The position numbers were made by a program, and so were the translations under genes. The notes under the pieces were generated by a model. It worked only from the letters and a program-made list of their open reading frames with translations, was not told the DNA's origin and made no database searches. Of a stretch of DNA of 64,000 nt, positions 50,991 through 63,722 are shown piece by piece. Within the stretch, counting starts at the first letter, position 1. The number at the start of each line of letters is the position of its first letter. The DNA comes from Rhodocaloribacter litoris. GTDB lineage: Bacteria; Bacteroidota; Rhodothermia; Rhodothermales; ISCAR-4553. The stretch lies in assembly GCF_011682235.2 (NCBI RefSeq), contig NZ_CP076718.1:3081868-3145867 (forward strand), given 5' to 3'.

Positions 50991-51234
50991 TTCTATCGCC
51001 AACTGTGTAACTCCTAATACCAGGGCAATTTCACCGGCAGGAGAACGCCGCGCTGCCCGGCCTCCGTGGTGCGGAGCCGTCGCGAAAGGCGATGGCACAT
51101 CGCCTGAAGCCGGATCCGGCGTCAAATGTCACGGACCTGCGTTATTTCTGCTGCACCGGGATCCCCCACGGATTTTCTGGAGGTCGTTCCCTAAGTTTGC
51201 CGGCAAAGCAATGCGCATCGGGTTTGAGGTGTCT

Positions 51235-51400
51235 TGATTCTTGACACTCCCACGGCTCTGGGCACGTGGGATTCTTGCTTCATCGACAGTTGCCTTCGCT
51301 AACCAGAGCTAGCGCCGGTCTTACACCGTCTCCACAAGCTGACACGGTATGTCCTACCGCCAGAATATTCTGTGCCGCGTTTATATCGCGGTCATGTTCC
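51235..51400 (-). ncRNA. Predicted omega RNA of TnpB
   Basis: TnpB nucleases use an RNA derived from the 3' end of tnpB and the right end. By analogy the RNA would cover the last about 100 nt of the gene, the 51248-51271 hairpin and then a guide copied from the flank just left of about 51235. Location is inferred from the family; exact ends are unknown. Confidence 0.4.
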
Positions 51401-52446
51401 TCCCCGCAGCGAGGGCATACCCATGCCCGCACATCGAGAGGAAGGGTTTCCATTGTATAGTTGCAGCGCGAACACGTCTTGCTGCTCGGATACCAGCGGT
51501 CGATCTGCACAAAGCGTTTGCAGTACAACGTCGCCTTGTACGAGAGCATCCCGACGAACGCGCTCCAACCGGCATCGCTGATGGCCCGGGCAAGGCTGTG
51601 GTTCTTGACCATGCCCCTGACGCAGAGCGATTCGGCGTAGATCACGTCGTACCGCCGCACGAGCCGCGTCGAAAGCTGGTGCAAGAAGTCGGTGCGTTGG
51701 TTCCGCACCTTCGCGTGCAGCTTCGCCACCTTCCGGCGTTGCTTGTGCCAGTTGGCGGACCCCTTCTGCTTGCGGGCGAGCTTTCGCTGCTCGCGGGCAA
51801 GACGATCCAGAGCGCGTTTGAGATGCTTTGGATTACCGCTACGCCAGCCGTCGGAGGTTACCACCACATCCTTCACGCCGAGATCGATGCCCACCTCTCT
51901 CCTGGTTCTCGGGAGAGGCTTGTGCTCCACCTCAACGACGAAGCTGATGTAGTACGTCCCGTCCGGCTCCTGAACCACCGTCAGCGAAGACGGAGCGGAC
52001 GGCAGCGGGCGGCTCCACCGAATCTTGAGCGGGGTGCTCATCCTGGCGAGCTTCACGACAGGCTGCCCCCGCACACCGCTGTCTCTGAGCGAAAAGCCGC
52101 GCCGGGTGTACGTGGCGCTCTGCCGGTGCTTCTTCGCCTTGAAGCGAGGAAACCGGGCGGTGCTCCGGAAGAAGGCGGTGTACGCTTTGTCGAGATGTCG
52201 AAGGGCCTGCTGAAGCGGAACGCTGGAGACGTCGCGAAGCCACGCATGATTGGGATCGCGTTTGAGTTCGGTCAGACGGCGATCCGTCTCGGCGTAGCCG
52301 ATCTTCTCGCCTCGCTCGCGGAAAGCATCCCGCTTGAGTGCCAGCGCCCAGTTGTAGACGTACCGAACGCACCCGAACTGCCGGGCGAGCATCTGTCGCT
52401 GCTTGGCGTTGGGATAGAAACGGTATCGGTAACGTACGGTGGGCAT
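51280..52446 (-). CDS. tnpB: TnpB RNA-guided nuclease
   Basis: A 388-residue IS605-type TnpB, ancestral to Cas12. The N-terminal wedge/REC part has CVRYVYNWAL and SSVPLQQALRHLDKAY. The RuvC nuclease residues are all present: Asp188 in GIDLGVKD, Glu272 in YAESLCVRGM and Asp354 in HDRDINAAQNI. The zinc finger has CSRC (325-328) and CPRC (344-347). Length and motifs indicate a functional enzyme. It interrupts the space between the GDP-mannose epimerase and the WbaP-like gene, reading against the polysaccharide operon. Confidence 0.95.
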   Translation of the reverse strand: MPTVRYRYRFYPNAKQRQMLARQFGCVRYVYNWALALKRDAFRERGEKIGYAETDRRLTELKRDPNHAWLRDVSSVPLQQALRHLDKAYTAFFRSTARFPRFKAKKHRQSATYTRRGFSLRDSGVRGQPVVKLARMSTPLKIRWSRPLPSAPSSLTVVQEPDGTYYISFVVEVEHKPLPRTRREVGIDLGVKDVVVTSDGWRSGNPKHLKRALDRLAREQRKLARKQKGSANWHKQRRKVAKLHAKVRNQRTDFLHQLSTRLVRRYDVIYAESLCVRGMVKNHSLARAISDAGWSAFVGMLSYKATLYCKRFVQIDRWYPSSKTCSRCNYTMETLPLDVRAWVCPRCGEEHDRDINAAQNILAVGHTVSACGDGVRPALALVSEGNCR

Positions 52447-52556
52447 AATGGTACCGGGGCCTCACAAGTTATTATGTGTCGCCTGCGGAAGTTCCTGGCT
52501 GGGCTGGATTTGCTCGTGCCCGAACGCGGCTTTCTCCCACATGGGCTATCTCATGG

Positions 52557-52604
52557 GGCCGCGTTACACGGCCAACATAGCCCTGAAGTCCGTGGGCTTC
52601 CGCC
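52557..52604 (-). repeat. Possible truncated right end of another IS605-type element
   Basis: Read leftward, 52604-52583 is GGCGGAAGCCCACGGACTTCAG, in short the left arm of an IS605-type right-end hairpin, but the complementary arm is missing and is replaced by GGCTATG. Next to it is a stem GGCCG-N7-CGGCC (52557-52573). This suggests that the tnpB element landed beside, or within, an older relic. Confidence 0.35.
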
Positions 52605-52719
52605 GCTCTCAACCCTGACCCTTTTATCGTGAAGGCTTGAAGAACGGATGGCGGCATGCGCGGCTGGCACAATGTGTGCTCGAAGCCGGTTGACCGCTGT
52701 CATATCCCATCTCGACGAC

Positions 52720-63665: not shown

Positions 63666-63722
63666 CGGCCGTGTTACACGGCCCGATCGCCACCTTTTTT
63701 GTCTCAGCCTGGATAGAACGAC

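What the first reader, a model, noticed from the sequence alone, without database searches (positions are those of the whole stretch)
51229..52446. Intact solo TnpB nuclease with canonical right-end hairpin
All RuvC residues and the zinc finger are kept and the right end is a textbook IS605 hairpin, so the RNA-guided nuclease is probably active. The guide would come from the flank at about 51150-51235, the intergenic space after the epimerase gene. Thermophilic TnpB proteins are of practical interest as compact nucleases.
Basis: partly seen in the sequence, partly recalled or inferred. Interest (0 to 1): 0.55.

Follow-up and report, generated by a model that had tools for sequence, protein, structure and literature searches.

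The report
Solo TnpB element invaded by micro-palindromes
The window holds an ordinary but intact stand-alone TnpB element (a small RNA-guided DNA cutter), and comparing its sister copies shows something odder: tiny 18-letter mirror-image DNA inserts that nest inside one another and sit in frame inside genes.

Summary
The TnpB observation is right with corrected edges. The element is 1,388 bp, window 51241-52628 (- strand), next to TTCAC (52629-52633). The ORF (51280-52446, 388 aa) keeps D188/E272/D354 and four zinc-finger cysteines. The right-end hairpin is 51248-51271; the predicted guide starts at 51240. Sister copies, one with joined flanks restoring a peroxidase-family gene, fix the ends. 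Purifying selection (dN/dS 0.13-0.20, ten pairs) supports a working nuclease. No Y1 TnpA was found in the genome, so the family looks immobile now. As a TnpB it is ordinary.

The copies reveal something less ordinary. 19 of 30 indels of 9 bp or more, among sister tnpB elements and one stretch of shared DNA, are 18, 36 or 54 bp long and palindromic. They nest (17, 35, 53, 71 bp), interrupt tnpB in frame, and lie in other genes. One family (GGNCGYGTNACRCGNCC) has 57 exact places here, 6 in one relative and at most one in each of 392 other genomes of the phylum. The window element carries one unit in its left-end hairpin (52557-52573). I found no description of uniform 18-bp units in the papers I could search. 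The enzyme behind them is unknown.

The parts
51241..52628 (-). tnpA-less IS200/IS605-type element (1,388 bp), clade A of this genome
   Evidence: ends defined by alignment of 8 copies
52629..52633 (-). TTCAC target site / predicted TAM just outside the left end
   Evidence: YTCAC on the left flank of 8 of 8 aligned copies
51280..52446 (-). tnpB, 388 aa, RuvC D188/E272/D354, zinc finger C325 C328 C344 C347
51248..51271 (-). right-end stem-loop TCCCACG-T-GC-loop-GC-CGTGGGA
51241..51390 (-). predicted omega RNA (reRNA) scaffold: 3' part of tnpB plus right end; 5' edge approximate
   Evidence: fold z -3.15; consensus structure with 3 pairs changed on both sides; about 150 nt in ISDra2 including the guide (PMC8612924, passages)
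51221..51240 (-). predicted natural guide GAATCAAGACACCTCAAACC (flanking DNA)
   Evidence: position immediately 3' of the right end; first 16 nt unique in the genome with <=2 mismatches
52535..52599 (-). left-end hairpin AAGCCCACG..ATGTGGGA
   Evidence: bare loop of 10 nt in sister copy L004
52543..52583 (.). first inserted palindrome GGGCTAT..ATAGCCC in the left-end loop, uninterrupted in L017 and L021
52557..52573 (.). 17-bp micro-palindrome GGCCGCGTTACACGGCC nested in the previous one

Best explanation
The locus is an IS200/IS605-type element that has lost, or never carried, its TnpA. It holds an intact TnpB and a right-end omega RNA. By analogy with ISDra2, TnpB is expected to use an RNA whose last 16-20 nt come from window 51240 downward, and to cut DNA bearing YTCAC followed by that sequence. 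That target is the element's own site when it lacks the element (shown: anatomy, ends, unique guide, selection; inferred: transcription, processing, cleavage). With no Y1 TnpA in the genome, excision is not expected now. The remaining use would be to cut element-free alleles that arrive by recombination and so keep the element in place (inferred). Independently, the DNA of this element family, and of other genes in this genome, has been invaded by 18-bp palindromic units that insert without visible target duplication, often in frame and often in the centre of an earlier unit (shown by paralogue and two-genome comparison). I think they are copied in by an unknown trans-acting activity (inferred).
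For: TnpB identity: Pfam and NCBIfam, ISDra2 TnpB 8bf8 E 4.8e-73, Foldseek top hits 8h1j, 8exa (model only pLDDT 73.9, pTM 0.46). Ends: YTCAC in 8 of 8 left flanks and GTGTCAA in 8 of 8 right ends. In L003 the joined flanks give an open 'peroxidase-related enzyme' protein (TIGR01926, E 2.6e-50, residues 2-178 across the junction). Selection: dN/dS 0.128-0.199 in 10 of 10 pairs. The non-coding left end diverges by 0.246 per site against 0.084 for the last 140 nt. No Y1: (positive controls ring). Palindromic units: 19 of 30 indels >=9 bp are multiples of 18 (14 of 18 bp, 4 of 36, 1 of 54), all 19 with a stem >=6 and 18 of 19 >=7, against 5.7% of 900 background 34-mers with stem >=7. Ladder 17/35/53/71 bp. 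57 places in this genome, 6 in G008, 1 in each of five others, 0 in 387, of 394 genomes.
Against: No RNA data and no cleavage assay. The consensus RNA structure has little covariation (covariation term +1.02, 3 of 55 pairs changed on both sides, 7 sequences). No Rfam match. In the window copy the right-end GTGTC can pair with GACAC inside the guide, which might weaken it. One of six clade-A copies is frameshifted. Selection may have acted before TnpA was lost. For the units, 11 of the 30 indels are not multiples of 18. Some are alignment splits of nested left ends, one is a 24-nt tandem repeat (48 bp), but 20-, 21-, 23- and 39-bp cases are real exceptions or carry extra changes. The indel count left out gaps within 30 columns of an alignment end.
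Confidence: 0.82

Rival explanations
1. Ordinary active IS605 mobility in trans: a TnpA of another, undetected kind still moves these solo elements, and TnpB keeps donor sites filled.
For: Copies of several TnpB clades share left ends. Exact insertion at TCAC/TTAC-type sites with a TCAA right end is typical of TnpA work (IS608 TTAC and ISDra2 TTGAT in PMC8612924 passages).
Against: 0 PF01797 matches in the genome even at E<=1 although the model finds TnpA in other genomes of the same call. Copies differ by 12-15%, so no recent burst.
Confidence: 0.1
2. Domesticated TnpB: the element has been recruited for a host function (for instance regulation) rather than self-maintenance.
For: Strong purifying selection on several copies without TnpA.
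Against: RuvC residues intact, unlike the nuclease-dead TnpB-like regulators I recall from the literature. Flanks and guides differ between copies, and one copy disrupts a gene. No conserved neighbourhood could be tested because no relative holds a close copy.
Confidence: 0.08
3. For the palindromic units: not mobile, but produced locally by polymerase template switching at hairpins, with frame-keeping selection giving multiples of three.
For: Units nest at centres of earlier palindromes, where hairpins form; arm sequences vary (GGCCGY, GGACGY, GCGGCG, GGCGAT, GCCGAACG).
Against: The same unit sequences occur at many unrelated places (57, 8 and 10 places for three arm types). The 18-bp step is also kept in non-coding left ends, so frame selection cannot set it. 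The flanks do not supply the template.
Confidence: 0.2
4. For the palindromic units: presence/absence differences are gene conversion between copies that already carried them, not new insertion.
For: The same unit sits at the same codon (N|PKHL) in clade A (L002, L005, L006) and in clade B copy L036.
Against: Units also differ in presence at other genes: the L118 gene has an extra 7 residues against 7 of 7 relatives. Clean 18-bp differences also exist between G000 and G008 in shared prophage-like DNA.
Confidence: 0.12

Closest known systems
ISDra2 TnpB / IS200/IS605 elements (PMC8612924, passages)
   Same: domain order, RuvC and zinc finger, left and right hairpins, insertion next to a short fixed site without duplication, guide expected from the right flank
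   Different: no tnpA in element or genome; target site YTCAC here against TTGAT; left-end loop filled with nested palindromes; about 34% identity in the Foldseek match
Rickettsia palindromic elements, RPE (PMC10969869, passages)
   Same: palindromic repeats found in frame inside unrelated protein genes
   Different: RPE are about 150 bp; the units here are 18 bp, self-nesting and also in non-coding ends
Palindromic GC clusters of yeast mitochondrial DNA, GC42 (PMC4478555, passages)
   Same: GC-rich palindromes that spread, merge and shuffle; mechanism of movement unsettled
   Different: 42 nt, mitochondrial, putative AG target duplication; here bacterial, 18-bp steps, in frame in genes, no visible duplication
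REP sequences (PMC3733652 and PMC12306157, abstracts in search listings)
   Same: short bacterial palindromes in many copies
   Different: REPs are 20-40 bp and extragenic. The link of REPs to Y1 RAYT transposases is recalled; no Y1 is present here

Membership tests
IS200/IS605 TnpB element | TnpB domains with RuvC D-E-D and CxxC..CxxC | tested here: met
IS200/IS605 TnpB element | insertion 3' to a short fixed target without duplication | tested here: met
   YTCAC 8 of 8; L003 flanks rejoin to an open gene without extra bases
IS200/IS605 TnpB element | subterminal hairpins at both ends | tested here: met
IS200/IS605 TnpB element | Y1 TnpA (in the element or in trans) | tested here: not met
   0 PF01797 matches in the genome; so filed as a tnpA-less derivative, not as an autonomous IS605
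IS200/IS605 TnpB element | right-end RNA with guide from the flank | tested here: inconclusive
   fold z -3.15 but weak covariation and no RNA data
IS200/IS605 TnpB element | RNA-guided cleavage | not testable with these tools
   needs an assay
NCBIfam NF038281 IS200_TnpB (exception level) | score at or above 425 bits | tested here: not met
   398.1 bits; it does pass NF040570 guided_TnpB (368.1 against 100)
Rickettsia palindromic elements (for the 18-bp units) | in-frame palindromic insertion in genes | tested here: met
Rickettsia palindromic elements (for the 18-bp units) | length about 150 bp | tested here: not met
   18-bp steps
REP / REPIN (for the 18-bp units) | extragenic location | tested here: not met
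   units inside tnpB, RecQ-like, integrase-like and other coding frames
REP / REPIN (for the 18-bp units) | RAYT (Y1) transposase in the genome (recalled criterion) | tested here: not met

The most novel reading that the evidence does not exclude
A so far unnamed activity in this bacterial lineage writes 18-bp palindromes into DNA. Length is fixed, arm sequence belongs to a handful of types, and no target duplication is seen. It prefers mobile-element ends and the centres of earlier palindromes, and it yields six-residue in-frame insertions in proteins and nested 35-, 53- and 71-bp structures. This would be the smallest family of self-nesting mobile palindromes that I know of in bacteria, with TnpB elements as its main reservoir.
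Probability: 0.45. Interest if true: 0.8.

Novelty: new variant of a known kind. Interest (0 to 1): 0.55.

Why it matters
The TnpB itself adds a compact nuclease with a predicted YTCAC target, beside two further TnpB clades with TTAT- and TTAC-type sites in one genome. The palindromic units matter more. If real insertions, they are a way to add six residues to proteins and new hairpins to guide RNAs. They also give a clean natural experiment (same kind of site with 0, 1, 2, 3 or 4 nested units) for asking how such small palindromes move, a question still open for the GC clusters of yeast mitochondria.

Tried and rejected
Rfam search of the element: no match. PF01797 in own genome: none; reported as a result. 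A loose HUH regex for TnpA in fetched loci found nothing and was not relied on. A search with a TnpA read from L138 found TnpA beside TnpB only in L092 (directly upstream) and about 3.2 kb away in L061; none in the other related-loci loci at E<=0.001. One search was the same step with the wrong ORF. Close copies of the element in plasmids: 21 records, none covering 80% of it (pieces mostly 66-81% identity, mostly in the 3' half of tnpB), so it does not separate RNA from protein conservation; phages: none. Perfect palindromes (arms >=7) are not in excess in the window as a whole: 32 against 22-37 in five first-order shuffles; the units are specific, not a general palindrome excess. A first indel count used a gap model that made many false gaps and had L035 reversed; replaced. 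The structure model was too weak at the active site to place the inserts. I considered terminators for the units and rejected them because they lie inside coding frames and differ between copies. Literature searches for an 18-bp palindromic insertion or nested palindromes in bacteria; nothing of this size seen in the listings. One paper search is unused.

Full report
What is there. The window lies in a 4.50-Mb single-contig genome. On the - strand, 52446 to 51280, is an open 388-codon tnpB with the three expected Pfam domains and NCBIfam guided_TnpB. The catalytic residues D188, E272, D354 and the four zinc-finger cysteines are present and invariant in 19 aligned TnpBs and in 16. The closest solved natural protein is ISDra2 TnpB (E 4.8e-73). 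A structure model of moderate quality (pLDDT 73.9, pTM 0.46) finds TnpB structures first.

Ends. DNA search of the same genome found five further near-complete copies at 85-88% identity, shorter end fragments, and more distant TnpBs. Aligning six full copies with two internally deleted ones (401 and 62 bp) shows where similarity stops: after YTCAC on the left in 8 of 8 and after GTGTCAA on the right in 8 of 8. In the window this gives 51241-52628, with TTCAC at 52629-52633. The L003 copy tests this: joining its flanks gives an open frame that matches 'peroxidase-related enzyme' over residues 2-178 across the junction (E 2.6e-50). Clade B (about 50% TnpB identity) starts after TTAT and clade C (34%) after TTAC in the copies inspected, and their right ends end in TCAA (L035's clade-B right end is altered).

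RNA and guide. The right-end RNA folds better than all 200 shuffles (z -3.15). Seven sequences give a consensus fold, but only 3 of 55 pairs change on both sides, so the structure is plausible rather than proven. Over six copies the left end (positions 1-187) differs by 0.246 per site, the coding part by 0.116 and the last 140 nt by 0.084. The natural guide would start at 51240. Its first 16 nt occur once in the genome with up to 2 mismatches. In ISDra2 the guide is about 16 nt and the RNA about 150 nt (PMC8612924, passages). In the window copy GTGTC before the guide can pair with GACAC within it.

Activity and mobility. Among five intact clade-A genes dN/dS is 0.128-0.199 in 10 of 10 pairs at dS 0.22-0.50; the sixth is frameshifted. 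No Y1 TnpA was found at E<=0.001 or E<=1, while the same model found TnpA in other genomes. Serine recombinases of the IS607 kind were not searched. Of 60 genomes searched (own included), 16 have any TnpB match, and outside this genome none is above 53% identity, so the site could not be compared with an empty relative. I conclude that this is an intact, probably functional, currently immobile solo TnpB: a new member of a known kind.

The unexpected part. The left-end hairpin of the window copy is not simple. In L004 its loop is 10 nt. In L017 and L021 it is 31 nt and holds a palindrome GGGCTAT..ATAGCCC. In the window that palindrome is split by GGCCGCGTTACACGGCC (52557-52573). In L003 the inner palindrome is itself split (35 bp), and in L014, L016, L018 and L022 split again (53 bp); a 71-bp form occurs in L021 and twice in L117. 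Each step in the series 17, 35, 53, 71 is 18 bp. At the clade-C right end, L039 has a 17-bp palindrome where L021 has the 71-bp form.

Indel count. I aligned the six clade-A elements, six clade-B, three clade-C, and one stretch of DNA shared by this genome (L106) and G008 (L153), and listed every gap of 9 bp or more not within 30 columns of an alignment end: 30 gaps. 19 are multiples of 18 (14 of 18 bp, 4 of 36, 1 of 54). All 19 form a stem of at least 6 bp and 18 of 19 at least 7; of 900 random 34-mers from the same elements 5.7% reach 7. (The 36- and 54-bp cases are longer than 34, so the comparison flatters them.) By my reading of the coordinates, all 11 gaps that fall inside tnpB coding sequence are 18 or 36 bp. 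The 11 gaps that are not multiples of 18 are 10, 12, 17, 20, 20, 21, 23, 39, 48, 57 and 58 bp. Several are pieces of nested left ends; the 48 is a coding tandem repeat.

Inside proteins. The protein alignment shows inserts of 6 or 12 residues: KGRVTR between N and PKHL in L005 and L006 and at the same place in clade-B L036; AACTRR in L034; a 12-residue insert in L039 and L040; AARTRR in L040; AERSFG near the C-terminus of L003, L004 and L005 (last residues of the match vary), split again in L006. L036 also has one directly after the catalytic DRD, and L035 one that brings stop codons, so some of these probably do harm. The window tnpB has none. Units also lie in other genes: a RecQ-like helicase, an integrase-like gene (named by eye), and a gene whose seven best matches in seven genomes all lack the extra 7 residues. 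In the helicase, the PDB alignment shows a longer query segment around the unit but does not size the insert exactly. The L115 gene has 7 extra residues against its one close relative.

Distribution. GGNCGYGTNACRCGNCC has 57 exact places in this genome and none in G001, G003, G013, G023, G040. In 394 genomes of the phylum: 57 here, 6 in G008, 1 in each of five genomes, 0 in 387; the reversed control pattern gives 0-2. Two other arm types: GCCGAACGATCGTTCGGC, 8 places with <=1 mismatch and none in five relatives, and GCGGCGYGTACRCGCCGC, 10 here, 1 in G044, 0 in 58 of 60 genomes of the order. Of the 57 places, 21 are in the tnpB loci I fetched, which I estimate at 0.6% of the genome, so about 0.35 expected (rough element sizes). 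GGCCGTGTNACACGGCC was found in one viral contig stretch only.

Two genomes. G008, of another family, shares about 4.2 kb of prophage-like DNA with this genome at 93.5% identity (3886 of 4158 aligned bases). There the units differ: G008 has clean extra copies of 18 bp and nested copies of 36 and 54 bp, and this genome has an 18-bp copy that G008 lacks. So units have come or gone since the two lineages parted. Two genomes agreeing on unit size makes assembly error unlikely.

How the units may move. The size of 18 is kept in non-coding left ends, so it is not set by frame selection. Unit sequences recur at unrelated places, so they are copied rather than made from the flank. No target duplication is visible in the clean cases, and palindromes often borrow one or two bases of the target. 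I favour copying by an unknown trans-acting activity, perhaps through a single-stranded hairpin, at about even odds. Template switching and gene conversion are live rivals; the same-codon unit in clades A and B points to some conversion. No enzyme candidate was found or sought genome-wide.

Known relatives of the units. Rickettsia palindromic elements are in frame in genes but about 150 bp (PMC10969869, passages). Yeast mitochondrial GC42 clusters spread, merge and shuffle (PMC4478555, passages). REPs are 20-40 bp and extragenic (PMC3733652, abstract in listing). Searches listed no paper on 18-bp self-nesting palindromes in bacteria; that library lacks most subscription journals and preprints.

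Noticed in passing
window 63667-63683: A second exact unit, GGCCGTGTTACACGGCC, lies just after the TGA stop of an upstream frame and before a T run.
   Followed up: partly
L106 (G000 549500-557000) and L153 (G008 2334000-2343000): About 4.2 kb of prophage-like DNA is shared at 93.5% identity between genomes of different families, with different palindromic unit content.
   Followed up: yes
L017 with L042 (G000 about 413875-415060): A clade-A-type left end (TTCAC then GATAAAAGGG) lies next to a TnpB only 29% identical to the window's, which hints at exchange of ends between TnpB clades.
   Followed up: partly
L020 1894-1956: A 62-bp remnant in which the left-end hairpin arm is fused to the right-end hairpin arm: ends without any gene.
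   Followed up: no
L036 (G000 1568729-1569904): Clade-B TnpB with a unit directly after the catalytic DRD, giving an open but probably dead protein.
   Followed up: no
L022 against L016/L018 left ends: The compound palindrome is in opposite orientation in L022, as if inverted through a cruciform.
   Followed up: no
window 51221-51248: The window copy's right-end GTGTC pairs with GACAC in its own guide, which may hamper this guide.
   Followed up: no
G013:C1:836475-837941 (L092, L151): A complete tnpA-tnpB pair exists in another genome of the order.
   Followed up: no
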